Positions 29,068 to 57,760 of a DNA stretch of 64,000 nucleotides are shown piece by piece. Under the pieces are notes generated by a model that searched no databases, was not told the DNA's origin, and worked only from the letters and a program-made list of their open reading frames with translations. The first letter of the stretch is position 1. The number at the start of each line of letters is the position of its first letter. The position numbers and the translations under genes are program-made. Source of the stretch: Sulfurovum sp. (GTDB taxonomy: Bacteria; Campylobacterota; Campylobacteria; Campylobacterales; Sulfurovaceae); NCBI GenBank assembly GCA_027062365.1, contig JAMOTK010000022.1, positions 1 through 64,000 on the forward strand. Direction: 5' to 3'.

Positions 29068-29706
29068 TTATACTCTCTTTTTTGGTAGAATATTAAGAGC
29101 TATAATATTAATATTTTTTTCTTCTATCTTCTCTAAAGTTTCTTTACTATCCCCCACCAAATAAGTCTCATTCGCATACCTCATTAGTGGCAAATCATCA
29201 TGATGGTCAGTATATAGTATGCTTTGACTTGCTCTAATATCCTCTTCTTTGAGTAAGGCTAAAAGATTTTTCTTTTTCTCTTCTTTGAGGTTTTCTTTCC
29301 AAGGCTTTATACTTGTAGGGCTTGTAGCAATGACATAATCAAAGCCATATTTCTCTTTGATAGCTTTGGCATATATCAAGGGTGCTGCCGTGGCTAAAAT
29401 AGAAATATTCTTTTCTTCTAAGATTTTTAAAATGTTTAAATGTACATAAGGCTCTAAAGTATTTACAAAAATTTCTATTTCTTTGTCTGTGACAAGTTTT
29501 TCGGAGACTTCTAAAATAGCATATTTCATCTGGGCATGGTTTATTCTTTTAAATGCTCTCAATGCTATAGTATAGAGTATTTTACTAAGTGCTTTTAATC
29601 CTAATTTTTTTAGTGCTTGTTTGGCAACAAAAATCATCCATTTATGAAAAGTATTCACCGATACAAAAGTGCCGTCTAGGTCTATGATGAGGAGGGGTTT
29701 AGGCAT
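29068..29706 (-). CDS. HAD-family phosphatase (HAD-IB type)
   Basis: A 212-aa haloacid-dehalogenase phosphohydrolase. Motif I is LIIDLDGTF with nucleophile Asp9 and acid Asp11; motif II ILATAAP; motif III Lys in the SIKPWKENLKEEKKK region; motif IV YTDHHDDLPLM. A large helical cap follows motif I as in the phosphoserine-phosphatase-like IB group. I choose ATG 29706 (MPKPLLIID) because AAAGGA precedes it and motif I then starts at the usual place; longer forms overlap the upstream phosphoribosyltransferase. It overlaps that gene's end by eight bases, so the two are coupled. Substrate unknown; location in a polysaccharide locus suggests a sugar-phosphate. Confidence 0.8.
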   Translation of the reverse strand: MPKPLLIIDLDGTFVSVNTFHKWMIFVAKQALKKLGLKALSKILYTIALRAFKRINHAQMKYAILEVSEKLVTDKEIEIFVNTLEPYVHLNILKILEEKNISILATAAPLIYAKAIKEKYGFDYVIATSPTSIKPWKENLKEEKKKNLLALLKEEDIRASQSILYTDHHDDLPLMRYANETYLVGDSKETLEKIEEKNINIIALNILPKKRV

Positions 29707-30304
29707 TTTTATTTCCTTTATAATCCTCAGCCCAAGGACAGCGTAAAAGCGTATTTCTATATAGTGTATAATCAGCCTCAATATAAGGTTTTTTATGCGT
29801 CACAGTTAGCACAGCCGTTCTAATATCTAGCATTGGGTTGAGGTTTTGTATGACATTTTTAACACTCACTAGTGTAGTCCCTGAATCTATGGCATCGTCT
29901 ATGAGTAAGAGTGTTTTTGCTTTGCTTATCTCTTCTTTGAGAACCTCATTAAGTACCACTTCTTTTTCTCTATGCCCTTGATAGGTTTTATTTTTGAGTT
30001 TTTCACTTAAATTATTTTCCAAAATACGCAGTATATTCAAGATACTATAAGGCAAATATTTAAAGACCTTTTTAAGATAAAGAGCCTTTTTGGTTTTGGT
30101 AGAGGCTCTTTGTAGGGTGATTTCGTGGTAGCTTCCTTGCCACGCTTGGGCTTTTAAGCTTTCGTGTATAGGACGGCTAATATATACACCTCCAGTGGCA
30201 ATACCTATGAGTATATCTGCTTTAAAGCTATCGTCTTGGACAGCTTGGAGGAGCTTTAGGCTATGGGTTTTGAGTGCTTGTGGATTGAGGGTGAGGACTT
30301 TCAT
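29699..30304 (-). CDS. phosphoribosyltransferase family protein
   Basis: A 201-aa type I phosphoribosyltransferase. The PRPP-binding motif LLLIDDAIDSGTTL (about residues 131-144) is unmistakable, and an N-terminal ILIGIATGGVYISRPI gives the usual PPi loop region. It does not closely resemble apt, hpt, upp or pyrE in length or hood region. It sits between a glycosyltransferase gene (start overlapping that gene's stop region) and an HAD phosphatase, an arrangement that suggests transfer of a phosphoribosyl group followed by dephosphorylation. That pathway is inference; a nucleobase-salvage enzyme remains possible. Confidence 0.75.
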   Translation of the reverse strand: MKVLTLNPQALKTHSLKLLQAVQDDSFKADILIGIATGGVYISRPIHESLKAQAWQGSYHEITLQRASTKTKKALYLKKVFKYLPYSILNILRILENNLSEKLKNKTYQGHREKEVVLNEVLKEEISKAKTLLLIDDAIDSGTTLVSVKNVIQNLNPMLDIRTAVLTVTHKKPYIEADYTLYRNTLLRCPWAEDYKGNKNA

Positions 30305-31020
30305 AATTTCTCCTTTCTAAAGAAGCAAAAAAACAAGCCTTTGAGCATAAAAAATCTAAAGCCTATTTTTTGTATAAAGCTATTCTTTGAGCGACGGTCT
30401 GTGGGGGTGAGGGCTTGTGAATGTCGTCTATAGTGAATAAGGCATTCTTCGCTAAAATAAATTGAACCATAGCACTCTGCTATCAATCCTATCCACCAAT
30501 CATGCATGTTTATATCTCTTGGAAAAGGCAAAGATTTGTCTAATATCTTTCTATTAAATGCCATGCAACAACCTAAATAAGAGTTTTTATAAAGGTTTTT
30601 AGCAAAGCCCTTTTTAGAGTGATTAAAGGCAAAAAAAGAGCTGTGAATAGGAGAAAGGTTTTCATCTACCATGAGGGCATCGCTTAGGACCAAATCATAC
30701 TCTTTTAGATGGCGAAGCATGACTTCTTTTTTGTGAGGCAACCAAATATCATCTTGGTCAGCTAAAAATATATATTCTCCTTTAGCATGGCTAAGAGCAT
30801 GTTCAAAGTTATAGACATGAGAGGAAAAAGTTTGTGCTTTAAAGAGCTTGATACGCTTATCGTTGAGGGCTTCCATTATCGCTATGGTCTTGTCTGTGGA
30901 GCTGTCATCTGATAGTATAATCTCATCCTCTTGGTCTAGTTGTGCTAGAATAGATTCTACTTGTGCTTGGATATAGGTTTCGCCGTTGTAGGTGGCTATG
31001 CAGACGGAGATGGACATCAA
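30301..31020 (-). CDS. family 2 glycosyltransferase
   Basis: A 239-aa GT2 (GT-A fold) enzyme. It begins ISVCIATYNGETYI, shows the nucleotide-sugar-binding DDSSTDKT, the DxD-like LADQDDIW near residue 92 and a C-terminal acceptor region with HDWWIGL and LIHYRRHSQ. The HSQALTPTDRR-type end resembles rhamnosyltransferase-like GT2 proteins. It overlaps the RgpF-domain gene upstream and the phosphoribosyltransferase downstream by four bases each, so all are one transcript. Donor and acceptor unknown. Confidence 0.85.
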   Translation of the reverse strand: MMSISVCIATYNGETYIQAQVESILAQLDQEDEIILSDDSSTDKTIAIMEALNDKRIKLFKAQTFSSHVYNFEHALSHAKGEYIFLADQDDIWLPHKKEVMLRHLKEYDLVLSDALMVDENLSPIHSSFFAFNHSKKGFAKNLYKNSYLGCCMAFNRKILDKSLPFPRDINMHDWWIGLIAECYGSIYFSEECLIHYRRHSQALTPTDRRSKNSFIQKIGFRFFMLKGLFFCFFRKEKL

Positions 31021-31883
31021 GAGCCTTTCATGCGTTGAAGATGATTAATAATAAGTTTCGTATCATAGTCCGTATATTTCTCTATCGTTTTCTCCACCTC
31101 TTTAATATCCACACCTAGAGGATTATCGCGTAAAAGTTCTATCTTAATAAATGGCACTTTGCCTTGCGTGACGAGTTCTTTCCAAAAGTAGTGAGTACTA
31201 TTAATTTTACCAATACGAACAAGCCTTACGCGTCCTTCACGAAAAGATTTGAACTTTTTGATGATATTTTTAGGGGTGAGTTTGGCTAAGAATATAGAAA
31301 GTTTTTGCCAAAATGAGGGCTGAAAATGGGTGCTGACTCTGGGGATGAATCCTGCTTTGATGAGTATTTGGCTAAGTCCCACTTCATAGCGTTCTATGAT
31401 AGCAATTTTACTCTCTAATACTTCTATATTTTGCCAAAAATCTTGAAAGGCTTTATGCTTTAAAATAGGGCTTTTGAAGAGGATAAAATAGCTCTGAATA
31501 TGATAGCCCATATCTGTATTGTCCGTAATACCCCAAAAGTCACACGGGGTATTTTGCATACTTGTAAAGAGATTTTCTAGGGGATAGAGTGGGGCATAAA
31601 CGCTATCATTACAGAGAATCACTTCGTCATAGTCTTGGTAGGTAAAACTTTCAAGCCCTACGCTGTAGCTCATGAAATCATAGCCGATATTTTCTCTTAG
31701 AATTACTATATCGCAGTACACTTCTAGCTTTTTGACATCAGAGTTAGAGAGTTTTGCTGTGGATACAAAGACTAGATGAGAGCTATTGTCTTTGAGGGAT
31801 TGGATATAAGGGAAGAGGTAGCTATCAACTATATCATCACGGTCATAATGTACGAGGACAACGGCACGATTAGAGGGCATCAT
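31017..31883 (-). CDS. RgpF-type rhamnan synthesis protein
   Basis: A 288-aa protein with the rhamnan synthesis F (RgpF) domain. It begins AVVLVHYDRDDIVDSYLF, contains ENIGYDFMSY and YDEVILCNDSVYAPLYPLE, then DFWGITDN, all characteristic of the family that assembles rhamnose-containing polysaccharides in streptococci and many Gram-negative O-antigen loci. It overlaps the 1147-aa RgpF/GT4 fusion by 14 bases. Two RgpF domains in succession suggest two related transferase steps. Confidence 0.8.
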   Translation of the reverse strand: MMPSNRAVVLVHYDRDDIVDSYLFPYIQSLKDNSSHLVFVSTAKLSNSDVKKLEVYCDIVILRENIGYDFMSYSVGLESFTYQDYDEVILCNDSVYAPLYPLENLFTSMQNTPCDFWGITDNTDMGYHIQSYFILFKSPILKHKAFQDFWQNIEVLESKIAIIERYEVGLSQILIKAGFIPRVSTHFQPSFWQKLSIFLAKLTPKNIIKKFKSFREGRVRLVRIGKINSTHYFWKELVTQGKVPFIKIELLRDNPLGVDIKEVEKTIEKYTDYDTKLIINHLQRMKGS

Positions 31884-39555: not shown

Positions 39556-41376
39556 TTATTGATAGTATTGTAGAAAATAAAAGAAATCAGCATAAAGGGT
39601 ATGGATACACATTATAATGATAAAAATATTAAATAAAAAGAATTGTTTAAAACGTTCTACAAATAGTGATGCCATTATAGCAAATGCAAACATAAAAGGT
39701 AATAAATAACGAGGTTGTAATCCTCCTAAATAACCTGCACTAAGGTGTGATTTATAAGAAAATATAAATTGCACTACCAAAACAGCAAAAACAGCAAAAA
39801 GGGTCATCTTTCCGAGGATACAGTAACTACGGTTTGCTTCTTTACATCGAAAGAAAAATGCAAATATTGCCAAGATATGAGCCACAACTAGTCCCATAAC
39901 GCCACTCCACTGTGCATGTCCAAAAGAGTGATGGGAGTGAATACCAAACCAACCTCCTTTGATATAGTGTAGCATACGTTCAAACCATTGAGACAGATTG
40001 AGATGCAGTCGATATTGTTCAGGTACAAAAAATCCTGATGTAAGATAGGCTTTGGGGTGGGTGTGATTATAGGTAGGCACAAGAGCATGGTACTCTAGCA
40101 TAATAGAGGCTTGGTAGTAAAGAATAGGAGCTAAAAAGAGTGCCAAGAGTAGCAATTGATTCTTAGTGATTTGTATCCATTTTTTGGTATAAATCATTTG
40201 TATAAGGAAAAAAACTAAGGCAAAAAAGAGCAACAGTGCAGCGGTGAGCTTAGAAAAATAGGCAAGAAAAGCACCTAGCCCAAGGATAAAATATGTCAAG
40301 GTATGATAATTTTCTTCTAAGAGTCGCTTAAATCCAATGATAGCTAGAACGGCTCCTAGCATGGCTAAAGTATCATTGGTAATACTCCCTCCTAAGTAGC
40401 TATGCATAGGTATAGCTGTGAGTACAGAGAGATAGACAAAATGCCCCAAAATACCTATAGATGTAGAGAACCCAAGATAGAGTATGAGTAGTACAGTCAT
40501 AAAATAGAGCATCATACTTAACGTTCTATATTTATGTATATTTTCTTTTTGAGATATATTTTTATCATGGGCTAATGAAAGAAATTGATAATATAAAGGT
40601 GGATGGCTTAGATAGTGTGGCATCTTCTCAAATTGAGGTACTATCTCATAAGGTGTATTTTGTACATAGTTAATATATTTGAGGTGCATAGTCTCATCAG
40701 GTGGATAACCAAAACGAATATTTTCTTTATAATAAAGGGTTTTAAAGAGAATAAAGCCTAAAAAGATGCTATAAAGTATAAGTTTAGCCACAATACTATC
40801 ATCCAAAGAGGTTTTTTTATAGAGTGAATAGATATAGCCTAAGAGCATAACGATAAGTAAAGAGAGAAAAAATAGTTCTAAATTTAGAATTGAACTTTTG
40901 GAAGTTTTTTTTACTTTAAAATCAATAGAGAGTTGAGGGTCTGTGCCTGTGGTGTTAAAGTGAATAGTATTTTGTATATGTGTAAAATCTTTTATTTGAT
41001 GACCACTTGTTATTTGAGTGAGAGGAATCGTATAACGAAGGATTTTAAACCAATTAATACGCTTAATACGAATATTCTGAATCGTAATATTTCGCTTGGC
41101 TTTGGTACTTGGGTCAAATCTCATGGTTCTAATGGTATTAATATTAGGAATAGAAAAATGGTATTGATTATTGTTTTGATAAATAGCTTGTCTTGAATTG
41201 TATTCACTAAACCCTTGATTATCTCCTGCAAAATAAATTTTAGGGTTTAAAATATTTTGTTGAGGACTATGCATGGTAACGATCATTGTAATACCATTTT
41301 GTTGATACATCAGTCCTACAAAGAGCAGTATTACAGCGATAAAATTGATTAGACTATATTTAATTAGTGTTGACAT
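39556..41376 (-). CDS. GT-C type membrane glycosyltransferase (ArnT/DUF2142-like)
   Basis: A 606-aa membrane protein with one N-terminal helix, a soluble domain of about 150 residues (periplasmic, beta-rich), then about ten helices. The loop PPDETMHLKYINYVQN and HPPLYYQFLSLAHD recalls the acidic first-loop motif and PPLYY signature of GT-C transferases such as ArnT/PMT. It lies directly upstream of a DPM1-like polyprenyl-phosphate transferase and overlaps the kinase-GT fusion's end by 13 bases. It probably adds a side-chain sugar on the periplasmic face. Acceptor unknown. Confidence 0.65.
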   Translation of the reverse strand: MSTLIKYSLINFIAVILLFVGLMYQQNGITMIVTMHSPQQNILNPKIYFAGDNQGFSEYNSRQAIYQNNNQYHFSIPNINTIRTMRFDPSTKAKRNITIQNIRIKRINWFKILRYTIPLTQITSGHQIKDFTHIQNTIHFNTTGTDPQLSIDFKVKKTSKSSILNLELFFLSLLIVMLLGYIYSLYKKTSLDDSIVAKLILYSIFLGFILFKTLYYKENIRFGYPPDETMHLKYINYVQNTPYEIVPQFEKMPHYLSHPPLYYQFLSLAHDKNISQKENIHKYRTLSMMLYFMTVLLILYLGFSTSIGILGHFVYLSVLTAIPMHSYLGGSITNDTLAMLGAVLAIIGFKRLLEENYHTLTYFILGLGAFLAYFSKLTAALLLFFALVFFLIQMIYTKKWIQITKNQLLLLALFLAPILYYQASIMLEYHALVPTYNHTHPKAYLTSGFFVPEQYRLHLNLSQWFERMLHYIKGGWFGIHSHHSFGHAQWSGVMGLVVAHILAIFAFFFRCKEANRSYCILGKMTLFAVFAVLVVQFIFSYKSHLSAGYLGGLQPRYLLPFMFAFAIMASLFVERFKQFFLFNIFIIIMCIHTLYADFFYFLQYYQ

Positions 41377-44045
41377 AAAGAAAAGTCCTCTTTATCATGG
41401 GTGAGATTTGGATTATAATAGGGGTCACCCTCTGTGAGTATCGTCTCATGCCTTGCAAAAAGGGCATCTTTTTCTGTCTGAAACCTTGCGATTTTCTCAG
41501 GTGTATTGTCTTCTCCACGAGAGAGAGATTCGTGATGATACATTTGGGCATACGGCGTAAAGATATTGAGATAGCCTTTTTCTCTGACGCGTAAATTAAA
41601 ATCTACATCGTTATAGCCTATTTTAAATTCTACAGCATTCATACCCTCTACTTCTTGATAGACTGATTTTTTTATCATCAAACAAGCAGCTGTCACAGAA
41701 GAGAGGTTTTGAATGATATTGAGTCTATTGAAATATCCAGCGTGGTCGCGAGTAAATTCCCTATGCGAATGGGCAGCATAACCACCAAGCCCTATGATAA
41801 TCCCTGCGTGTTGTACAGTTTCATTGGGATAATAAAGTTTTGCTCCTACTGTTCCTACATCTTCTCTTTGAGAAAATTCTAACATTGCTTCTATCCAATC
41901 ATTATCAATAATTTCTATATCATTGTTGAGCAATAAAATATGCTCCCCCTTAGCATAGGTATTAACAGCGTGGTTGTTAATATCTGCGTAATTAAAATCT
42001 ACATTGTATTCATAAAAAGAGACTCTTTCATCTTTGGCTTCTAAAGAGAGCATCATCTCAAATGTAGCAGGGTCTTGGCTATTATTGCTAATCCCTATGA
42101 TTTCATAATTCTCATAAGTAGATTTTTCTAAGACAGAAGAAATAGACATTTCCAAAAGCTCAGGTCTATCTTTGAAGGGGATAATAATACTCACTAAAGG
42201 TTTGTCTTTTATTGCGTATTTGACCCTAAAGTAGTGATTTCTATTGGCATGAAGTACCTCAGCATCTATGCCTCTTCGTTTGAGTGTGGCTTCAAGGACT
42301 TTTTTGCCTCTCTCAATGGCTTCTGGCTTGGCTTCGCTATTGGAGGCTGTGGATGTCTCTAGCATTCGCCAGTGATACAAGACTTTTTGGATATGATAAA
42401 TACTTGAAGCTTTTTCTGTTAGGCGTAAAAATAAATCATAATCTTGCGAACCATCAAACTTGCTATTAAAATGACCTACACTATCTAGTAAGTCTTTTTT
42501 AAAGCAAGTAAAGTGGGTAATATAGTTATGAGAAAGCAGTAAATCAGGAGAAAAATCAGGTTTATAATGAGGATTACTTAAAACGCCCTCTGTAGAGATA
42601 AAGTCTTCATCACTATAGATAAAATCTGCTTTTTTCTCATTGATAGCTTTGACCATCTCATAGAGTGCATTAGGCGTAATCTCATCATCATTGTCCATGA
42701 GAGCGATATACTCTCCACTAGCTAGAGAAAGGGCTTCATTAGATGCTTTGGAGATGTTTTGGTTTTCTTTTAAATAAGTGATTTTTATTTTATTGTGTTT
42801 TAATGAGGACAAATATTTTAATAGTGATTTATCTGTACTTTTATCATCAGCAATACATAGTTCCCAATTGGTGTACCATTGACTCTTGATAGATTGAATT
42901 GCTAGTCTTAGCCACTTTACATCTACATTATAGACAGGCATGACGATAGAGATGAGAGGTTGGTATTTAAGATTGTGCAAAGTAGTTTTAATCTCTTCAC
43001 TCAAAGTAGGTATTTGGTAGGTATAGTGATGGCTTGTGTCATTGGATAAAATATCTTCTTTTAATGGCAGAGGATAGTCTTGCATATCAATCGTCTCAAA
43101 AGGCTTTTTCCCCATGAGAGTGAGAAGTTTTTGAGGGATAAGTTTACGAATCTTATTTTTAAGGCGTAAAGCATCGGTAACATGGAAGAGGAAATCAATC
43201 TGTTTATCTCTTAGTACTATGGCTTTATCGCTGTTTTCTTTTAGTATCTTGAATTGCTTTTTATGATGTGTAAGATGTTGTGAGAGCTCTTCTATATGTG
43301 CTTCTTTGCCTTTTATATGTGCTACTATAGGGGCATTGGTTTTAATGTATTGATACTTTTGAAAATAAAATCCATTGTCCATGACATATTTATCTACAAA
43401 ATGTCTTTCCATTCTTAAGTATAGAAAATGATTTTTCATACGGTACTTTTCTTGGTCTTTCAGGCTACCTAACATCAAGAGTGTACGATGAATAATATAT
43501 TCTACTGGTAAAGACGCTTCAAAAGCCCACTCATAATCAATGAGGTAAATATTCTCCTCTTGATAAATAATATTAGAGAAAATAAGGTCAATATTGGAGA
43601 TACCCTCAAAGCAAGTTTCGTTTTCTAATGTAGAAAAGTTGAGTTTTCCAAAGAGTGTTTGATAGCTTTCATCTAGCGAATCTGTAGAGATAGTTTTGGT
43701 TTTAAAAGAGGTTTTGACCAAAGAGATATAGTCATCAAAAAGTTGTTCTTTTTCTATCTGAGTAGAGGCTTGATGAAATTTCTTCTCTAAACTCTCACCT
43801 TCTATAAATTCAAAGGTAAGGCTATTGGGGCTTTCATCAATAATTTTGGCTAGTTTGACTTTAGGATTTATAATATTAGACCTAAGTTTAGCATAACTCT
43901 CTTTCATCTTTTTGAGATGAGGGATAGCTTCAGGACAGAGGGCTTGTTTTTTAATATATTTTTGACCATCTTGTTCGTATATAATGGTTTTTAATTGAAA
44001 TGCTTTGGCTCTTTCACTGTTATTTTTTACATAATGTATTTTCAT
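41364..44045 (-). CDS. kinase-coiled coil-GT2-GT2 fusion (WbdD-like kinase joined to polymerase)
   Basis: An 893-aa fusion. Residues 1-230 form a small-molecule-kinase-like domain: SLTFEFIEGESL, the catalytic-loop-like NIDLIFSNIIY (about 152-162, pattern HxDxxxxN with His replaced by Asn) and metal-binding LIDYEWAFEA (about 169-178). Residues about 240-290 are charged and helical, probably a short coiled coil. A first GT2 domain starts with PLISIVMPVYN (near 366) and has DDKSTDKS and DNDDEITPNA; a second starts with PLVSIIIPFKDRPE (near 618) and has LLLNNDIEIID and YNDVDFNLRVREKGY. The gene starts on the base after the methyltransferase stop (TAGATG). Domain order methyltransferase-kinase-coil-transferase mirrors the O9a chain terminator WbdD and its partner polymerase. 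That function is inferred. Confidence 0.8.
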   Translation of the reverse strand: MKIHYVKNNSERAKAFQLKTIIYEQDGQKYIKKQALCPEAIPHLKKMKESYAKLRSNIINPKVKLAKIIDESPNSLTFEFIEGESLEKKFHQASTQIEKEQLFDDYISLVKTSFKTKTISTDSLDESYQTLFGKLNFSTLENETCFEGISNIDLIFSNIIYQEENIYLIDYEWAFEASLPVEYIIHRTLLMLGSLKDQEKYRMKNHFLYLRMERHFVDKYVMDNGFYFQKYQYIKTNAPIVAHIKGKEAHIEELSQHLTHHKKQFKILKENSDKAIVLRDKQIDFLFHVTDALRLKNKIRKLIPQKLLTLMGKKPFETIDMQDYPLPLKEDILSNDTSHHYTYQIPTLSEEIKTTLHNLKYQPLISIVMPVYNVDVKWLRLAIQSIKSQWYTNWELCIADDKSTDKSLLKYLSSLKHNKIKITYLKENQNISKASNEALSLASGEYIALMDNDDEITPNALYEMVKAINEKKADFIYSDEDFISTEGVLSNPHYKPDFSPDLLLSHNYITHFTCFKKDLLDSVGHFNSKFDGSQDYDLFLRLTEKASSIYHIQKVLYHWRMLETSTASNSEAKPEAIERGKKVLEATLKRRGIDAEVLHANRNHYFRVKYAIKDKPLVSIIIPFKDRPELLEMSISSVLEKSTYENYEIIGISNNSQDPATFEMMLSLEAKDERVSFYEYNVDFNYADINNHAVNTYAKGEHILLLNNDIEIIDNDWIEAMLEFSQREDVGTVGAKLYYPNETVQHAGIIIGLGGYAAHSHREFTRDHAGYFNRLNIIQNLSSVTAACLMIKKSVYQEVEGMNAVEFKIGYNDVDFNLRVREKGYLNIFTPYAQMYHHESLSRGEDNTPEKIARFQTEKDALFARHETILTEGDPYYNPNLTHDKEDFSLCQH

Positions 44046-44936
44046 CTATTCTCCACATATTACTAAAAATGAGTTGGCAAAAAATGGGTATTGTCCATTT
44101 TCTATAATCCCAGCATAGGCATCACTCTCATCAAAGAGTGTATAGCGTTCATAGTCAAAATTAGGAGCAGGGCTAAGTTGTGAAGTGCTACTAGGTAAAC
44201 AATCATCTGAATATATCTCCATAGGCATTTTATAATCAGGATGAGGATAATAAAAGTCTTGACTTGGATACCCACTGCTATTTAAAAGCATTTCTAACTC
44301 TTGTTTGCCAAAGGTACGTACGGTGTCGGTATCTTTGTATCCTGTAATACCATCAAATTCTTTAGAAGTATGGTCTTCTTTTGCACCAGAAAAATATTTG
44401 AGTCCATAACGATTTTCTATAGCAATGATGAGTTTACCATCAGGCTTTAAATATGTTTTAATTTGTTTTAAAAAGTCTTGATATGGTTTATCTGTTTTGG
44501 TGAATGATCCTGCATATTCTAGTACACCATTGAGTGTAATATAGTCAAACTTTTCTTTAAAGACCACATCATTTAAATTGGCAACGATAATTTCCAAATT
44601 TTCATAGTGCTTATGTCTTTCATAGTTAATATTAGCCCGTCTTTGAGAGAGTTCTACTGCTGTTACTTTGGCTAAACTGTCACATAATGCCCCAGTAATA
44701 GCACCACATCCAGCACCAATCTCAAGACAAGTTCCATTTTCTTTAAATGGATACCAATTAATAATATTTTGTCTAATAGGAGAGAGATGGTACAGTATAG
44801 GCCATCGCGTGTCTTTTGCTAAAATAGCACTAAAATCATTATGATTTTTAACAATTTCCAACAATTCATCTTCTATATCCCCATCACTGTAGTGATCTGT
44901 TCCTGTATAAAATTCTAAGTTTAGTATGGCACTCAT
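44046..44936 (-). CDS. SAM-dependent methyltransferase
   Basis: A 296-aa class I methyltransferase. Motif I CLEIGAGCGAITGAL (about residues 70-84), acidic motif II AVELSQRR, motif IV region FDYITLNGVLEYAG and KPDGKLIIAIENRYGLKYFSG follow the Rossmann methyltransferase order. An N-terminal helical region contains WPILYHLSPIRQNIINWYPF. It ends one base before a kinase-GT2 fusion and lies upstream of it in the same transcript. By analogy with WbdD of E. coli O8/O9a it could methylate the non-reducing end of a glycan; methylation of a monomeric sugar is the alternative. Confidence 0.8.
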   Translation of the reverse strand: MSAILNLEFYTGTDHYSDGDIEDELLEIVKNHNDFSAILAKDTRWPILYHLSPIRQNIINWYPFKENGTCLEIGAGCGAITGALCDSLAKVTAVELSQRRANINYERHKHYENLEIIVANLNDVVFKEKFDYITLNGVLEYAGSFTKTDKPYQDFLKQIKTYLKPDGKLIIAIENRYGLKYFSGAKEDHTSKEFDGITGYKDTDTVRTFGKQELEMLLNSSGYPSQDFYYPHPDYKMPMEIYSDDCLPSSTSQLSPAPNFDYERYTLFDESDAYAGIIENGQYPFFANSFLVICGE

Positions 44937-45004: not shown

Positions 45005-46555
45005 TTACTGTGTTTTGGCTTGTATAGTATATCTTTGATACTTTGGAAATGCTTTTGGTACTTCAAAAAGTATAGCCTTATAGTGCTTATCACTATGCTT
45101 TTGGTAGCTTTTTTGATAGTTTTTACTTCCTCGTCTTTGATATAGTACAGGTTTTCTATAGATAAATTTAATCACAAAAGCAATATCATCACGTGCATAA
45201 TAGTAAAGAGGTTTACTATTTTGATAGTGACTCTGATAATAGGCTAGTTTTTCTCCAATAGATATAATCTGTTCTTGATTTAAATTAAAGGCTCTTTTGT
45301 GTTCTATAAACATATTTTTAAAAGAGCGAATATTGTTATAATAATTGGATGAAGATGAGATATATTTTGAATACATAAGCGTAACCATAAAAATGGCTAT
45401 CATCGCCGTATGAAATATGTAAATTTTACTTGTTTTTAGATGTACCATGATGTATACAATAAAAATAGGCACGATTAAAAAAAGTAGTGAACTAAAGTAA
45501 AATCGATAAGAGACTCTATCATACGTCAAAAGTCCAGCCAGTCCAGCAGAATACTTAAAGAGTGGGATGAGTATAAATAGTGAAGCGATACAGACAAAGA
45601 GTAGTAACCGTAGATTGATAAGTAGAGGAGATTTCTTGTACGATTTATAGAGTAGTATACATCCAAAAATAAGTATCAAGAATAAAGAAAGGTATATAAA
45701 ACTATTGAGTGTTGTAGATGCTTTGTTATAATGAGAAAGTATCATATCCCCATGTTTATCTATTTCTTCCAGAAGTAAAGGAAGCTTTTCCCAGCTTAGA
45801 TAAGACAATAATTTTGATTTTGCATAAATATACTGTTGTAAATAGGGTGCTACTGTAATAATAGCCAGACTACTCACAATAAGTAAGGTAAAAGTGATAA
45901 AGAGATGCTTTATACACCACTTTATAATCATATCTATATGTACCAATATCAACACAGCTAAATACATCATGTAATAGATATATTCCATAGCATGTATACG
46001 AATAATGATATAAGAGAAGCCCAAAATCAGGAGACTATAAAAGATTTTTTTAGTCAGACTACTTGTCTCAAAAATAAGTGAAATAGTTAAAGCGAGTATA
46101 AAGAGTGTAAAGACTAAACTAATTTGATAATTGATAGAGTACCATACAATCCAAATTTCATGATGGTTCACAGAGTAGGTGGAGAGTAGGGTCACCCATA
46201 CCATAGAAGACCATAACGCTACATCATTGAGCAAAGAGCGTTGAATATGGGTAAAAATATTTTTTATAAAAGTACGACTTACATAAAAAATCATCATAAA
46301 AGTAAGAATCATTTGCGTATAGTGAATAATATAGGCACGTAAAAATATCTCTTTGTTTTCAATATTGAAAAAATCAAAAATATTAGACCATGTATAGTGC
46401 CACATATAACGTGTGGAAGGAGCATCCACGCAGAGTGATTGATTGTCAATCCACTGTAAATGTGTATACATATCAAATGGATAGATAAGCAAGGGGTGGG
46501 TTGAAAAAATAGCCATTATAATAATAAAAAAAAGAAATATATGCCTAGTATTCAA
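45005..46555 (-). CDS. polytopic membrane protein of unknown function
   Basis: A hydrophobic protein of about 516 aa with ten or more membrane helices and a C-terminal soluble tail rich in Tyr, Lys and Gln. The helix-loop pattern resembles GT-C glycosyltransferases or O-unit ligases, but I see no diagnostic motif; an acidic-aromatic stretch after the first helix (YPFDMYTHLQW) is the only hint. I choose TTG 46555, just inside the end of the Wzt gene, because earlier in-frame starts (to 46630) run far into Wzt; ATG 46516 is the alternative. Its context between Wzt and the methyltransferase suggests a role in the same glycan. Confidence 0.6.
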   Translation of the reverse strand: MNTRHIFLFFIIIMAIFSTHPLLIYPFDMYTHLQWIDNQSLCVDAPSTRYMWHYTWSNIFDFFNIENKEIFLRAYIIHYTQMILTFMMIFYVSRTFIKNIFTHIQRSLLNDVALWSSMVWVTLLSTYSVNHHEIWIVWYSINYQISLVFTLFILALTISLIFETSSLTKKIFYSLLILGFSYIIIRIHAMEYIYYMMYLAVLILVHIDMIIKWCIKHLFITFTLLIVSSLAIITVAPYLQQYIYAKSKLLSYLSWEKLPLLLEEIDKHGDMILSHYNKASTTLNSFIYLSLFLILIFGCILLYKSYKKSPLLINLRLLLFVCIASLFILIPLFKYSAGLAGLLTYDRVSYRFYFSSLLFLIVPIFIVYIMVHLKTSKIYIFHTAMIAIFMVTLMYSKYISSSSNYYNNIRSFKNMFIEHKRAFNLNQEQIISIGEKLAYYQSHYQNSKPLYYYARDDIAFVIKFIYRKPVLYQRRGSKNYQKSYQKHSDKHYKAILFEVPKAFPKYQRYTIQAKTQ

Positions 46556-47816
46556 TATGTATCTCACTCTGTAAATCAAAAAATCCAACCATCTGTGCAG
46601 CACCAATAATATCAAAGAGTATCGCATCATAGATACGGCTATAGACTTCTACGCCTGTTTCATTGAGTGTGACACAACCCAATGAAAGGGCATAGGAACC
46701 TAACTGTAGATTGGCTTTTTGTTTAAAACTTATAGTGATAATTTGGTCTTTGGTATAGGTGCCTGTGGTAACATATTTCATATTGGTATTGGTGCCTGTG
46801 AGTTCTAATCCTTTGGAGTCTTTGAGTGTAAAGGCAAAGATAGGGGCTATAATACTTTGAGCAAATTTTACTTTCATAATAATTTTAAATTCAGCATTAT
46901 AATCAATAATATTAGCAGGTCTTCCTTTTTTATCGAGGATACCATAGTCTATAATACTAGCTTTCCCATTGCCATATTTATCTAACTCTTTGTGTGTGTC
47001 AAAAAAATCTTTAAGGTATGTACTATTATCTTGTAGGTCTATGGTCTCTTCTTTATTGTCATCTTCTTTTTCATAAAAATCATTGGAGAGTACTTTTTTG
47101 AAAGCATCCACTGCAAATTTAGGTGAGCCATCAAATACTATTTGTCCTGCGTCTATGACGATACCTCTATTGCAGTATCTAAGTACTGTATCTAGGGCAT
47201 GGGTCACAAATAAGATGGTACGACCTTGGGCTTGGAAGTCTTGAAACTTTTTAAAACATTTCATTTGAAATGCCATATCTCCTACACTTAACGCTTCATC
47301 TACAATGAGAATATCAGGTTCTACATTGATGGATACCGAAAAGGCTAGACGTGCGAACATACCAGAACTATACATCTTTACAGGTTGATGGATAAATTCA
47401 CCAATATCAGCAAATTCTAAAATAGCATCTACTTTAGTAGCCATTTCTTCGTGGCTAAAGCCCATGAGTGTACCGTTGAGATAGATATTTTCCATACCAC
47501 TCATATCAGGATTAAATCCAGCACCTAGTTCTAAGAGTGAAGCGATAGTTCCTTTTGTCTCAATCGTTCCTAAAGTTGGAGTCAATACCCCTGTAATCAT
47601 TTTTAGTAGGGTAGATTTACCTGCACCATTTTTACCGATAATACCAAGGGTCTCCCCTTTTCTTATCTGTAAATTGACATCACTCATAGCATAAAAATCA
47701 TGATGATACGACTTCTTAAAAGGGTTAAGTGCCTCTTTAAGTCGGTCTTGAGGCTTATCATAAAGATGATATATTTTGGTGAGGTTTTTTACCTCTATGG
47801 CTATTTTATTTGGCAT
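46545..47816 (-). CDS. wzt: polysaccharide ABC exporter ATPase with Wzt C-terminal domain
   Basis: A 423-aa ATPase powering export of a lipid-linked polysaccharide. Walker A GKNGAGKS (residues 61-68), Q-loop, signature YSSGMFARL (in place of LSGGQ, typical for Wzt/TagH), Walker B ILIVDEAL and switch His FVTHA are visible in the first 240 residues. Residues about 280-423 form a beta-sandwich resembling the Wzt_C carbohydrate-binding domain (VTTGTYTKDQIITISF, LQLGSYALSLGC), which in E. coli O8/O9a recognises the methylated chain end made by WbdD. It is encoded next to the permease, stop-to-start overlapping, and two genes upstream of the methyltransferase/kinase fusion in transcript order. Confidence 0.92.
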   Translation of the reverse strand: MPNKIAIEVKNLTKIYHLYDKPQDRLKEALNPFKKSYHHDFYAMSDVNLQIRKGETLGIIGKNGAGKSTLLKMITGVLTPTLGTIETKGTIASLLELGAGFNPDMSGMENIYLNGTLMGFSHEEMATKVDAILEFADIGEFIHQPVKMYSSGMFARLAFSVSINVEPDILIVDEALSVGDMAFQMKCFKKFQDFQAQGRTILFVTHALDTVLRYCNRGIVIDAGQIVFDGSPKFAVDAFKKVLSNDFYEKEDDNKEETIDLQDNSTYLKDFFDTHKELDKYGNGKASIIDYGILDKKGRPANIIDYNAEFKIIMKVKFAQSIIAPIFAFTLKDSKGLELTGTNTNMKYVTTGTYTKDQIITISFKQKANLQLGSYALSLGCVTLNETGVEVYSRIYDAILFDIIGAAQMVGFFDLQSEIHIEY

Positions 47817-48607
47817 TATAGTACATCCGAAAAGTGTGGTCTAAGTCTTCTAAAGGTCAATCCACCAAAAACAAAAATAATCATAGTAATACTCCAAAAA
47901 TAGATAGTCATGCCCATATCTTCCCAAAACCATACGTGGTTAATCATACTGTCTCTATAGCCTTGAATGAAATAATAGGCAGGATTAATTTGGATAATCC
48001 AATGATATTTCTCTGGTACCATCTTTAAAGACCAAAAGATAGGGGTCAGCCAAAATCCAAACTGTATAAACATACCCACTATCTGTCCTATATCTTTAAA
48101 AAAAATAATGACAGAAGAGGTGAGCCATGAAAGCCCCAAAAGAAGTACACAGGTAGCAAATAAATAATAAAATATTTGTAGCCAATAGATTTCAGGGGTA
48201 TATCCATAATAGATAAACATTGTAAACATAAAAAATATAAAGAAGACATGGACGATTAACGCTGTAGAAATGGAAACAATAGGAAGTAAACTTACCCTAA
48301 AAACAACTTTTTTGACTAAAAAATTATTACTCAATATACTGTTTGTCCCAGCTGTGAGTGCTTCAGCAAAGAAAAACCACGGAAACATACCCACCACAAG
48401 CCATAAAATAAAAGGGAAGTTATCAATAGGTTTTGATTTAAATCCTACTTGAAAGACAAACCAAAGTATTGCTATCGTGGCAGAAGGTAATATAAATGCC
48501 CAAGCGACACCTAGAAGATTACCAAAGTACTTTTGTTTAAAATCATTTTTAGTGAGTGACCATAACAGTGTTTTATTTTGAAAAATAGCTTTAATAAATG
48601 CTAACAA
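47816..48607 (-). CDS. wzm: polysaccharide ABC exporter permease
   Basis: A 263-aa ABC-2 permease of the O-antigen/teichoic-acid export family. Six membrane helices; the N-terminal amphipathic entry LLWSLTKNDFKQKYFGNLLGVAW and the loop LPSATIAILWFVFQ, GMFPWFFFAEALTAGTNSIL, and C-terminal INPAYYFIQGYRDSMI are characteristic. It overlaps the start of the ATPase gene by one base and follows rfbB without gap. Together with Wzt it would carry the finished chain across the inner membrane. Confidence 0.92.
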   Translation of the reverse strand: MLAFIKAIFQNKTLLWSLTKNDFKQKYFGNLLGVAWAFILPSATIAILWFVFQVGFKSKPIDNFPFILWLVVGMFPWFFFAEALTAGTNSILSNNFLVKKVVFRVSLLPIVSISTALIVHVFFIFFMFTMFIYYGYTPEIYWLQIFYYLFATCVLLLGLSWLTSSVIIFFKDIGQIVGMFIQFGFWLTPIFWSLKMVPEKYHWIIQINPAYYFIQGYRDSMINHVWFWEDMGMTIYFWSITMIIFVFGGLTFRRLRPHFSDVL

Positions 48608-49624
48608 TTACAGTACTTTATATTTATTGAGATACCAGTCAATGGTCTTTATAATACCTGTATCAAAATTCTCATCAGCTTTCCACCCTAGTGTTTCTTC
48701 TAGTTTACTTGCATCAATAGCATAACGTCTATCATGACCAGCTCGGTCTTGTACAAAAGTGATGAGTTCTTTATAAGAAGTCTCACGAGGTACTTTTTCA
48801 TCTAATATGCTACAAATGGCATCCACTATTTGTAAATTTGTTCTTTCATTACGCCCACCGATATTATAGACATTGGCTTCTTTTCCTTCATGATAAACAA
48901 GGTCAATCCCTTTACAATGATCCAAAACATAGAGCCAATCACGGATATTTTTACCATCACCATAGATAGGGATATTCTCACTTGCCAATGCCTTACGTAT
49001 GATAGTAGGGATAAGCTTCTCATCATGTTGTTTTGGACCATAGTTGTTAGAACAATTTGTAATCACCGTATTCATGCCATAAGTTTCTTGATAGCTTCGT
49101 ACAATCATATCTGATGACGCTTTGGACGCAGAGTAGGGAGAATTGGGTGCATAAGGGGTTTCTTCTGTAAATAAATCTATCTCATTGAGTGTTCCATAGA
49201 CTTCATCGGTAGAGATATGATGAAAACGACAAGCTTCATAACCTTCTTTTTTAGCAAACGGCTTAGACATCCAATATTTATAAGCAACATCAAGAAGCGT
49301 AAATGTACCATTGACATTGGTTTGCATGAATACTTCTGGGTTTTTAATAGAATTATCTACATGGCTTTCTGCCGCAAAGTGAATGACACCTTGTATATCG
49401 TATTCGTTAAAGATAAACTCTACTAAGTCACGGTTACAGATATTACCTTTAATAAATTTATAATTTTTATTGTCTTCACACTCTTTGAGATTGGCTAAAT
49501 CCCCTGCATAAGTGAGTAAATCTAAATTTATAAGAGAATACTCTGGATATTTATCTAAAAAATAAGGTACAAAGTTTGACCCTATAAATCCTGCACAACC
49601 TGTGACTAAGATACTTTTTTTCAT
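48608..49624 (-). CDS. rfbB: dTDP-glucose 4,6-dehydratase
   Basis: Extended short-chain dehydrogenase of 338 aa. Rossmann GCAGFIGSNFVPYF (residues 9-22), AESHVDNSI, the catalytic STDEVYGTL (Thr, Asp, Glu of the 4,6-dehydratases) and YSASKAS with Tyr/Lys, then NCSNNYGPKQHDEKLIP. The DE pair after Thr supports dehydration of dTDP-glucose to the 4-keto-6-deoxy sugar. rfbA, rfbC and rfbD are not in this window, so the rest of the dTDP-rhamnose or dTDP-deoxysugar path must lie outside it. It is directly followed by the wzm gene. Confidence 0.92.
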   Translation of the reverse strand: MKKSILVTGCAGFIGSNFVPYFLDKYPEYSLINLDLLTYAGDLANLKECEDNKNYKFIKGNICNRDLVEFIFNEYDIQGVIHFAAESHVDNSIKNPEVFMQTNVNGTFTLLDVAYKYWMSKPFAKKEGYEACRFHHISTDEVYGTLNEIDLFTEETPYAPNSPYSASKASSDMIVRSYQETYGMNTVITNCSNNYGPKQHDEKLIPTIIRKALASENIPIYGDGKNIRDWLYVLDHCKGIDLVYHEGKEANVYNIGGRNERTNLQIVDAICSILDEKVPRETSYKELITFVQDRAGHDRRYAIDASKLEETLGWKADENFDTGIIKTIDWYLNKYKVL

Positions 49625-54625: not shown

Positions 54626-57600
54626 ATGAAAAGTATAATCAAAAAATCGTTACTAATCACAGTTTTACCCCTTGGAGCATTTGCAGTGGGTATCAATAAC
54701 TTAGACCCAGTGGTCAATTACAATATAGGTGCAGGGGCTACAGTGATTGATTCAGACCTAGCAGTAGTGACTACAGCAGGATTTAATGGTCAGTCTTTGG
54801 AGGTATCATTAGCAGATATGACCAGCAACGATCATATTAACTTGATTTCTACTCCTCAAGCATCTATTGTAGATGGTGAAATATCTGTAGTAGGTGGCAA
54901 CCTTTTTTTAGGTGATGGCACAATAGCTTCTCCTATCGGAGCTGTGGATTCTGTTTTTCAAGGAAATGGTAATAAATTGCGTTTAGACTTTTCTATAGGT
55001 TTTGAAAATGGTAGTTTCAATACAGGAAGTAATGGAGATACCACTATCTCAGGTTGGACTGTAGTTAACCAACAAGCGATACTTGATGGTACAACTACCA
55101 TTGCAGGACAACCTACCCCTATTGATTCTACCTATCCCATGCCTGTAGCTGGTAGTATGGAACCAGTACCTACAGATGGAAATGGAAATCCTATCCCTGC
55201 AACTGATACTGGTGTTGCTAGTATGACATATACTTCAACTCTCCAATCAGGCCAAGTTCCCGATGGCTCTGGTTTGTCTGTTGAATTAACAAGTGATGGT
55301 AACTCAGTTGATGGATATGCAGTGATTAGAGGACCATATATCGTGAGTAATGCTTCTGTAGCATTGGCTGCAAATGATACACTATCCTTTGACTGGAGAG
55401 CTGTAGGTGGAAGCGATTCTTTTGATGTTTTTGGATATATCGTAGATGTAGATACAGGACATACAGAAATCATCTTAGATAGAACAGGAACATCTGCTAG
55501 TGAAGATACACCTTGGGATGGTGTAGCATATACCGTGCAGAATCCTGGTAATTATAAATTTGTTTATATCTCAGGAACGTATGACTTTACGGGTGGTATG
55601 GCATTGGGTGGACAGCTTTATGTAGACAATGTTGTGGTGACACAAGCCAACCCTGCAACCATTTCTTCTACAAATATAGAAGCATTACTCAAAAAGATTA
55701 CCTACCATAACAGTGCATCTGTACCCAACATCTATGATAGAGCTTTGGCAATCACACTGAGTGATGATGCACCATCTTCTGTAACTGAAACCACAACACT
55801 CGTACGTGAAAACCATGCACCTGTGAGTGTTGCTGCTACACATACAATAGACCAAGATACATCCAAAACATTTGCACTTAGTGATTTTGTGATGAGTGAT
55901 ACAGATGGGGATGCTTTGGTATCTATAACGATTGTTTCCTTGCCATCTGTTGGGACATTACAATTGAGTGGTACAAATGTGACAGCATCACAGGTTATAG
56001 TACCTGCAGATATAGGCAATCTAGTATATACACCAGTCGCAGGGGCAACAGGTGTAGTATATGCATCATTTGACTTTAGTCTTTCAGATGGTAAATTAGC
56101 ATCTAATGTTTCATCAGTTATTATCAATGTGGCACATGTAGATACTATACCTGTAGCAACGGGTGTTTCATTGACAGGTACTATGTCATCATTGTCAACA
56201 CTTACAGGTAATTATACTTATAGTGATGTAGATAATGATACAGAAGCAGGTACAACATTCAAATGGTATCGTTCTACTGATGCTTCAGGTACAGGTAAAA
56301 CACTTATTTCAGGAGCTACAGCACAAAGTTATACACTAGGGGCTGCAGATGTGGGTAAATTTATTAGCTTTGAAGTGACTGTTGCCAATGCAAATGCCTC
56401 AGGTGTAGCTGTAGAAAGTGCGATTAGTATCACATCTGTCATAGCAAATACTGTCCCTGTGGCAAGTAATGTAAATATATCAGGTACATTTGAAGTAGGT
56501 CAATCACTTTCAGGTAACTATATATATGCAGATGCAGAGAATGATGTAGAATCAGGTACAACATTCAAATGGTATCGTTCAAATGATGCCTCAGGTACAG
56601 GTAAAACACTTATCTCAGGAGCTACAGCACAAAGCTATACATTAGTGTCTGCAGATGCAGGGAAGTTCCTTAGCTTTGAAGTTACTGTGAGTAATGTAAA
56701 TAGCTCTGGTGTCGCAGTAGAAAGTAGTATTAATTCTACTATAGTTGACTCTTTACCTGTTACTTCCAATGTTTCATTTACAGGTACATTAGAAATTAAT
56801 GCAACACTTACAGGTACTTATACTTACAATGATACAGATGGCGATGTAGAAGCAGGTACAACATTCAAATGGTATGAATCATCAGATGATGCTGGTTCAG
56901 ATAAAACAGAAATTGTAGGAGCTGTAAGCCAAACATATATGCTCACAGTAGCACAAGACAATAAATACATCAGCTTTGAAGTAACCGTTGCCAATGCAAA
57001 TGGTACAGGTAATACAGAGGAAAGTACGATTAACCCAGAAAAAGTAGTTGATGGTACAAGTATCCGTGTATGTATCGAAAAGCTTTATAACACAGTACTT
57101 GATAGAGAAGCTGATACAGAAGGACTTGATTATTGGACAACTCAATTAGAAACTGCTAAAATTGGTGGTGCTGACCTTATTAGGAAATTTTTTAGCCTAC
57201 AGTCATTTACTGATAGAAACCTAGATGATGCAACGTATGTAGAAACTTTGTATCTTGCAGTCCTTAATCGACAAGCAGATACAGGTAGTTTGAATTTTTG
57301 GTTATCAAAACTAGAAGAAGGTGTTTCAAGAACAGATATGTTAGATAAGTTTTTAGCTACACAAGGGTTTGCAGATAGATGTGCAAAATACAATGTAGCC
57401 CCAGCACACGCAGGTGTGGTATCTTATGTTGAACGTTTATATGTCGAGCTTTTAGGACGTGATTCAGAGCCAGAAGGTCTTGAATACTGGACGACTAGGC
57501 TAGTAAATGGTACATTGAGTGCTTCAGATATTGCAAGAAAATTTTTACTATCTTCAGGATTCACTACTACAACATCGGATGATGTAGTATATTTAACCAA

Positions 57601-57760
57601 ACTTTATAAAACATTTTTGAACCGTGAACCGGATCAAGGTGGTTTGGATTATTGGTTGAATAAACTATCCACTGGGGTAACTAGAAATACTGTAGCAGAA
57701 ATATTTTTAGGGTCACAAGGATTTATCAATCTTGCCAATTCATATAGTATTCGTCCGTAA
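54626..57760 (+). CDS. secreted Ig-like/cadherin-like protein with DUF4214 repeats
   Basis: A 1044-aa extracellular protein. A signal peptide (1-20, cleavage after AFA) precedes a beta-rich region (about 30-385), a cadherin-like domain (about 395-505, with SDTDGDALVSI), three ~100-residue Ig-like repeats (about 506-806; each has SGTTFKWYRS or AGTTFKWYRS/YES and KFISFEV-like strands), and four ~50-residue DUF4214 units (about 812-1040, with LDREADTEGLDYWTTQL, LLGRDSEPEGLEYW, FLNREPDQGGLDYWLNKL). DUF4214 domains occur in surface and type I secreted proteins, but here a Sec signal is present. It is preceded by an 11-base inverted repeat and followed by a terminator. Likely a surface or S-layer-like adhesin; function inferred. 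Confidence 0.82.
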   Translation: MKSIIKKSLLITVLPLGAFAVGINNLDPVVNYNIGAGATVIDSDLAVVTTAGFNGQSLEVSLADMTSNDHINLISTPQASIVDGEISVVGGNLFLGDGTIASPIGAVDSVFQGNGNKLRLDFSIGFENGSFNTGSNGDTTISGWTVVNQQAILDGTTTIAGQPTPIDSTYPMPVAGSMEPVPTDGNGNPIPATDTGVASMTYTSTLQSGQVPDGSGLSVELTSDGNSVDGYAVIRGPYIVSNASVALAANDTLSFDWRAVGGSDSFDVFGYIVDVDTGHTEIILDRTGTSASEDTPWDGVAYTVQNPGNYKFVYISGTYDFTGGMALGGQLYVDNVVVTQANPATISSTNIEALLKKITYHNSASVPNIYDRALAITLSDDAPSSVTETTTLVRENHAPVSVAATHTIDQDTSKTFALSDFVMSDTDGDALVSITIVSLPSVGTLQLSGTNVTASQVIVPADIGNLVYTPVAGATGVVYASFDFSLSDGKLASNVSSVIINVAHVDTIPVATGVSLTGTMSSLSTLTGNYTYSDVDNDTEAGTTFKWYRSTDASGTGKTLISGATAQSYTLGAADVGKFISFEVTVANANASGVAVESAISITSVIANTVPVASNVNISGTFEVGQSLSGNYIYADAENDVESGTTFKWYRSNDASGTGKTLISGATAQSYTLVSADAGKFLSFEVTVSNVNSSGVAVESSINSTIVDSLPVTSNVSFTGTLEINATLTGTYTYNDTDGDVEAGTTFKWYESSDDAGSDKTEIVGAVSQTYMLTVAQDNKYISFEVTVANANGTGNTEESTINPEKVVDGTSIRVCIEKLYNTVLDREADTEGLDYWTTQLETAKIGGADLIRKFFSLQSFTDRNLDDATYVETLYLAVLNRQADTGSLNFWLSKLEEGVSRTDMLDKFLATQGFADRCAKYNVAPAHAGVVSYVERLYVELLGRDSEPEGLEYWTTRLVNGTLSASDIARKFLLSSGFTTTTSDDVVYLTKLYKTFLNREPDQGGLDYWLNKLSTGVTRNTVAEIFLGSQGFINLANSYSIRP
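56140..57045 (+). repeat. three tandem Ig-like repeats in DUF4214 protein
   Basis: The segment starting GGTACAACATTCAAATGG recurs at 56249, 56555 and 56855, offsets of 306 and 300 bases (102 and 100 codons). Copies 1 and 2 share long identical stretches around 56249-56350 and 56555-56655; copy 3 is more diverged. Confidence 0.85.
57055..57755 (+). repeat. four tandem DUF4214 units
   Basis: Four units of roughly 50 codons, each with a Leu-Tyr ... Leu-Arg/Gly-Arg ... Asp/Glu-x-x-Gly-Leu ... Tyr-Trp pattern (for example READTEGLDYW and REPDQGGLDYW). They differ mainly in linker length. Confidence 0.75.

What the first reader, a model, noticed from the sequence alone, without database searches (positions are those of the whole stretch)
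41364..44936. Split WbdD-like glycan chain terminator fused to its polymerase, next to a Wzm/Wzt exporter
In E. coli O8/O9a, WbdD (methyltransferase, kinase, coiled coil) caps the chain and sets its length, WbdA polymerises, and the Wzt C-terminal domain reads the cap. Here a methyltransferase gene ends one base before a gene encoding kinase-like domain, short coiled coil and two GT2 domains, in the same domain order, and a Wzt with C-terminal carbohydrate-binding domain lies upstream in the same transcript. Fusion of the terminator to the polymerase on one chain would be a new way to couple length control with polymerisation. The catalytic-loop-like motif has Asn for His (NIDLIFSN), so activity is unproven.
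Basis: partly seen in the sequence, partly recalled or inferred. Interest (0 to 1): 0.74.

Follow-up and report, generated by a model that had tools for sequence, protein, structure and literature searches.

The report
Split sugar-chain terminator joined to polymerase
Beside a sugar-chain exporter, a Sulfurovum-like bacterium carries a two-gene version of a known enzyme that builds a surface sugar chain and caps its end; joining capper and builder was already known, but having the capping methyltransferase as a separate gene is a widespread layout for which no description was found.

Summary
Window 44046-44936(-) encodes a class I methyltransferase (MT); its stop codon abuts 41364-44045(-), an 893-aa protein: kinase-fold domain (1-233), one long helix (240-302), two GT2 domains. 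A Wzt with Wzt_C lies upstream in a 17-gene run. AlphaFold/Foldseek puts the N-terminal domain in the aminoglycoside/macrolide-phosphotransferase fold (AmiN included). Lys33, Asp153, Asn158 and Asp170 are nearly invariant; Asn in place of His is the family rule (85%), not a defect.

The novelty claim fails. Klebsiella O7 ORF6 (2024) is the same MT-kinase-coiled-coil-GT2-GT2 machine on one chain, biochemically proven to make a methylphosphate cap; WbbB and WsaE are other terminator-polymerase fusions. The kinase is O7-like, not WbdD-like.

What is new is layout: MT on its own gene, kinase leading the ruler or ruler-polymerase, in 58 of 82 retrieved loci, mainly Campylobacterota and Bacillota. 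Sister loci with a 61-73% identical polymerase but another terminator have unrelated Wzt_C (18-19%), whereas MT-kinase loci keep Wzt_C similarity across phyla: Wzt_C follows terminator type, not polymerase. Cap chemistry is untested. New variant of a known kind; interest 0.45.

The parts
   Evidence: Pfam; AF2 pLDDT 91 and Foldseek class I MT; 37% identical to the MT domain of fused Pseudomonas P0006; residues matching the SAM site of Klebsiella O7 ORF6 (Y28,Y66,G91,G93,E112,Y158) are Y16,Y49,G74,G76,E95,Y141 here
43347..44045 (-). kinase domain of the fusion, residues 1-233 (catalytic Lys33, Asp153, Asn158, Asp170; Asn151 at the HxD His position)
   Evidence: AF2 pLDDT mostly 93-98, Foldseek APH/MPH/AmiN; conservation in 65 relatives; profile built without the plasmid loci finds the P0006 kinase
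43140..43328 (-). coiled-coil 'ruler' helix, residues 240-302
   Evidence: continuous helix in AF2 model; heptad score 242-275
41364..42968 (-). two GT2 polymerase modules (about residues 360-600 and 605-890) and C-terminus
   Evidence: Pfam; homologous to the tandem GT2 of P0006 (phmmer 8e-57 and 1e-73)
46545..47816 (-). Wzt ATPase with C-terminal carbohydrate-binding domain (predicted cap reader)
   Evidence: ABC_tran and Wzt_C 2e-33; Wzt_C tracks terminator type
47816..48607 (-). Wzm permease
   Evidence: ABC2_membrane 7e-16
48608..49624 (-). NAD-dependent sugar dehydratase, RmlB-like (dTDP-glucose 4,6-dehydratase)
   Evidence: Pfam GDP_Man_Dehyd 6e-89; RmlC- and RmlD-family genes on contig C73, RmlA-like ORF near C22:80 kb
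45005..46630 (-). membrane protein between wzt and the MT, conserved in several Sulfurovum relatives
   Evidence: no Pfam; homologues in L012, L013, L016, L020, L023, L027
31017..35313 (-). RgpF-type and GT4 glycosyltransferases of the same gene run (two genes)
   Evidence: Pfam RgpF, Glycos_transf_1
29068..30304 (-). HAD phosphatase and phosphoribosyltransferase genes at the end of the run; candidate split ribofuranosyltransferase
   Evidence: PF12710 3e-15, PF00156 4e-12; inferred from the gPRT+PRP description in PMC11127046

Best explanation
The pair is a split relative of the Klebsiella O7 ORF6 class of methyltransferase-kinase chain terminators. The two C-terminal GT2 modules extend the lipid-linked glycan; the kinase, held at a distance on the coiled coil, phosphorylates the non-reducing end once the chain is long enough and so stops growth; the separately encoded but tightly co-encoded methyltransferase docks on the kinase and methylates that phosphate; Wzt_C binds the methylphosphate cap and licenses export by Wzm/Wzt. 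Shown here: domain folds (by prediction), active-site conservation, module homology, gene adjacency, Wzt_C-terminator association. Inferred from O7/O9a: substrate, cap chemistry, ruler role, MT docking in trans.
For: Kinase fold with intact catalytic set; homology of MT, kinase and both GT2 modules to a fully fused Pseudomonas protein whose MT residues fall at the very numbers published for O7 ORF6; O7 ORF6 shown in vitro to make a methylphosphate cap, kinase-dead when D441A; MT directly before a kinase gene in 58 of 82 loci and fused to it in 11 more; Wzt_C upstream on the same strand in 65 of 82; polymerase-matched loci with another terminator have Wzt_C at 18-19% identity against 31-87% in all but two MT loci; tandem repeats in the coil linker of relatives have periods in multiples of 21 nt in 16 of 20 cases.
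Against: No biochemistry; acceptor and polymer unknown. His-to-Asn in the catalytic loop is unusual, and the residue in O7 ORF6 itself was not seen. Within MT loci Wzt_C and MT distances are not correlated beyond Wzt_N (partial Mantel p 0.09), and two MT-kinase loci (L044, L010) have dissimilar Wzt_C. About eight loci with 4 kb or more upstream show no Wzt_C there. 21-nt periods are also common outside the coils (19 of 61), though less so (Fisher p 2e-4). The O7-type Ig/CBM domain is absent here.
Confidence: 0.72

Rival explanations
1. The kinase-like domain is a structural pseudokinase; the cap is a plain O-methyl group added by the MT alone, as in WsaE or E. coli O8.
For: Asn replaces the catalytic-loop His; no Pfam kinase match; methyl-only caps exist in otherwise similar systems.
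Against: Lys33, Asp153, Asn158 and Asp170 conserved in 97-98% of 65 relatives; the homologous O7 domain is active and is inactivated by one Asp mutation.
Confidence: 0.13
2. The MT-kinase pair decorates sugars inside the repeat, or a lipid or donor, rather than terminating the chain.
For: Cap position cannot be read from sequence; the pair also occurs in a minority of loci where no Wzt_C was seen nearby.
Against: Coiled coil directly after the kinase in most relatives; adjacency to Wzt_C; Wzt_C differs when the terminator is replaced while the polymerase stays.
Confidence: 0.1
3. The in-frame stop (TAG ATG) is partly read through, so a full-length O7-like MT-kinase-polymerase fusion is also made.
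For: Stop and restart are in frame in 15 of 17 Campylobacterota loci.
Against: The stop is TAA in some close relatives and the frame is not kept outside Campylobacterota (9 of 41 in frame); a Shine-Dalgarno-like site fits ordinary coupled re-initiation.
Confidence: 0.03

Closest known systems
Klebsiella pneumoniae O7 ORF6 (Kelly et al. 2024, PMC11231755)
   Same: MT, APH-like kinase, coiled coil and two C-terminal GT2 modules in the same order; Wzm/Wzt operon; all six reported SAM-site residues conserved; proven methylphosphate terminator and polymerase
   Different: One polypeptide with an Ig-like CBM before the coil; here the MT is a separate gene and the CBM is missing
WbdD of E. coli O8/O9a (PMC3482155)
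   Same: MT, kinase, coiled coil, Wzt_C cap reading; works like it
   Different: Kinase is eukaryote-like and not detectably related by sequence; WbdD keeps MT and kinase on one chain and recruits a separate polymerase WbdA
WbbB of Klebsiella O12 (as described in PMC11231755)
   Same: Terminator, coiled coil and two polymerase GTs on one chain
   Different: Terminator is a Kdo transferase; no MT or kinase
WsaE of Geobacillus stearothermophilus (PMC2943079)
   Same: MT and two GT domains for a rhamnan exported by Wzm/Wzt
   Different: Reported as 2-O-methyl cap, no kinase described; one polypeptide
Lcin_0519 family (Legionella pan-kinome, PMC9758233)
   Same: Kinase plus MT, often with coiled coil, beside Wzt, Wzm and a GT
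   Different: Fused MT-kinase, function predicted only; sequence not compared here

Membership tests
Klebsiella O7 ORF6-type MT-kinase terminator | MT domain with the ORF6 SAM-site residues | tested here: met
   37% identity to P0006; all six residues conserved. ORF6 sequence itself not available; P0006 used as collinear stand-in
Klebsiella O7 ORF6-type MT-kinase terminator | APH-like kinase domain with catalytic Asp (D441) | tested here: met
   Foldseek APH/MPH/AmiN 6sv5 E 2.8e-5; profile match to P0006 kinase, E about 1e-7 (whole protein) to 1e-9 (domain) in a small test set, Asp153 aligned
Klebsiella O7 ORF6-type MT-kinase terminator | coiled coil between kinase and two GT2 modules | tested here: met
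   helix 240-302; GT2 pair
Klebsiella O7 ORF6-type MT-kinase terminator | MT and kinase on one polypeptide | tested here: not met
   separate genes joined TAG-ATG; split in 58 of 82 loci
Klebsiella O7 ORF6-type MT-kinase terminator | Ig-like CBM after the kinase | tested here: not met
   model passes directly from kinase to helix; the authors do not know whether the CBM is needed
Klebsiella O7 ORF6-type MT-kinase terminator | methylphosphate cap activity | not testable with these tools
   needs in vitro assay and NMR
WbdD family (E. coli O8/O9a) | eukaryote-type WbdD kinase domain | tested here: not met
   profile finds no WbdD chain in PDB; WbdD not among the 50 best folds; published distinction of O7-type kinase
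WbdD family (E. coli O8/O9a) | terminator on a chain separate from the polymerase | tested here: not met
   kinase fused to GT2-GT2
Wzm/Wzt cap-dependent exporter | Wzt with C-terminal carbohydrate-binding domain in the same gene run as the terminator | tested here: met
   PF14524 2e-33; association with terminator type

The most novel reading that the evidence does not exclude
Terminators are swappable cassettes: a cap-making module and its matching Wzt_C reader are exchanged together around a conserved ruler-polymerase, and the split MT makes the two capping steps separable, with the kinase stopping growth and the MT in trans licensing export.
Probability: 0.35. Interest if true: 0.62.

Novelty: new variant of a known kind. 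Interest (0 to 1): 0.45.

Why it matters
It extends a well-studied enterobacterial length-control machine to Campylobacterota, Bacillota and possibly archaea, in a two-gene form in which stopping growth (phosphate) and marking for export (methyl) could be knocked out separately. The polymerase-matched, terminator-swapped sister loci are a natural experiment for the question of whether Wzt_C reads the cap or the chain; they point to the cap.

Tried and rejected
Novel fusion concept: rejected, precedents found. WbdD-type kinase: rejected on sequence and fold. Dead kinase because of Asn: rejected, it is the family rule. Gene split as sequencing artefact: rejected, conserved in many genomes. Stop-codon read-through: unlikely. 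Fine-scale Wzt_C/MT co-evolution: partial Mantel not significant. Viral contigs and plasmids searched with the window N-terminus: no match; the MT on plasmids gave two useful hits. E. coli search with the Citrobacter gene: no match. The 2019 survey of chain terminators is not held, so whether the split layout was noted there is unknown. Fusion versus fission: the MT tree gives at least 5 changes between split and fused and 13 between GT-bearing and GT-less kinase genes, but it is unrooted with long fused branches, so no direction is claimed.

Full report
Observation. The window lies on a 129-kb contig of a Sulfurovum-like genome (2.3 Mb; nearest named relatives Sulfurovum spp.). Seventeen genes run on the minus strand from 51059 to 29068 with gaps of at most 68 bases. 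They include a dTDP-sugar dehydratase, wzm, wzt with Wzt_C, a membrane protein, the MT, the 893-aa protein and several glycosyltransferases. MT stop and kinase ATG are adjacent; GGAG lies five bases before the ATG, inside the MT gene, and this is kept in most close relatives.

Fold. With 61 aligned sequences, residues 1-305 give a model with pLDDT 93.9: a kinase followed by one helix, 240-302. Foldseek's best PDB matches are macrolide and aminoglycoside phosphotransferases, RIO kinases and AmiN. TM-scores are modest (about 0.3-0.46), probably in part because the query includes the long helix. The MT model (pLDDT 91) matches class I methyltransferases. Among 65 relatives Lys33, Asp153, Asn158, Asp170, Glu172 and Trp173 are 97-98% conserved; the HxD His position is Asn in 85%.

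Relation to known systems. A fully fused relative, MT-kinase-coil-GT2-GT2, lies directly after wzm-wzt on a Pseudomonas asturiensis plasmid (P0006), and an MT-kinase-coil protein without polymerase lies after wzm-wzt on a Citrobacter plasmid (P0007). P0006 has the SAM-site residues at exactly the numbers published for Klebsiella O7 ORF6. A kinase profile built without these two proteins still finds the P0006 kinase, with the catalytic Asp aligned; it did not find P0007. The GT2 modules are homologous too. Kelly et al. 2024 (PMC11231755) showed that O7 ORF6 polymerises, phosphorylates and methylates, that D441A kills the kinase, and that its kinase is unlike WbdD's. Hence the window pair is a split O7-type machine, and fusion of terminator to polymerase is not new; WbbB and WsaE are further precedents.

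Distribution. One scan of 84,980 species genomes with the MT gave 448 relatives; the best 80 plus the two plasmid loci were classified: 30 split with kinase-coil-GT, 26 split with kinase-coil, 2 split but cut by the contig end, 11 fused, 2 with a second MT-kinase gene, 11 without a recognised kinase next door. Architecture counts rest on home-made profiles and on loci chosen by MT similarity to the window, so they are not an unbiased census; most are metagenome bins, so phylum labels of single loci (the archaeal ones above all) are uncertain. Kelly et al. describe orthologues that all carry the MT on the same chain; I found no description of the split form in the papers held, but the main survey is not held.

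Terminator and reader. In 78 genomes of the genus, 22 carry the GT2-GT2 module. In L129, L130 and L134 it lies in a run with a Wzt_C gene but the MT-kinase is missing: L129 and L130 have an additional N-terminal GT2 instead, L134 a different MT-like gene. Their polymerase is 61-73% and their Wzt_N 63-71% identical to the window's, but Wzt_C is 18-19%. Loci with the MT keep Wzt_C at 31-87%, except L044 (17%) and L010 (25%), even where the polymerase is different or absent. This is a type-level association from three swapped loci; within the MT group no finer correlation was found (p 0.09).

Ruler. In 20 of 76 kinase genes the stretch after the kinase has a tandem repeat; 16 have a period divisible by 21 nt, e.g. 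105 nt x 2.7 at 98% in Sulfurospirillum cavolei and 42 nt x 2.8 at 97% in Natronincola. Weak repeats may merely mirror heptad composition; the strong ones look like whole-heptad duplications and fit a ruler that changes length in register. The window's own coil has none.

Verdict. A real, widespread, slightly rearranged form of a known terminator-polymerase. The mechanism is inferred from the O7 prototype with good structural and comparative support; the chemistry is untested.

Noticed in passing
window 29068-30304 (-): HAD phosphatase and phosphoribosyltransferase genes end the same gene run; they resemble the PRP and gPRT halves of cytoplasmic ribofuranosyltransferases such as Klebsiella O7 ORF7, here as two genes, hinting at a polymer with ribofuranose.
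   Followed up: partly
G000:C22 about 63-76 kb (L103), just beyond the window: Second Wzm/Wzt_C locus; L103:5780-7219 encodes DUF4214, a 27-nt x 5.9 repeat at 98% (9-aa SKAERSELE units) and a C-terminal methyltransferase: a possible terminator with the spacer before the MT.
   Followed up: partly
L129, L130, L134: Sulfurovum loci with a closely related GT2-GT2 polymerase but a different front module (extra GT2, or another MT-like gene) and an unrelated Wzt_C.
   Followed up: yes
L034, L031, L037, L041, L044, L085 and others: Tandem repeats with periods in multiples of 21 nt in the coiled-coil linker after the kinase.
   Followed up: yes
L013, L015 (kinase-led ORFs of 1191 and 1184 aa): An RgpF-like stretch follows the polymerase on the same chain; in the window a similar domain is a separate gene (31017-31883).
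   Followed up: partly
L012 and L114: Close relatives of the 893-aa protein end after 652 residues, inside the second GT2.
   Followed up: no
L066, L082: Clostridial loci with two MTs in tandem, the second fused to the kinase.
   Followed up: no
window 54626-57760 (+): 1044-aa protein with Ig-like matches and four DUF4214 stretches.
   Followed up: no
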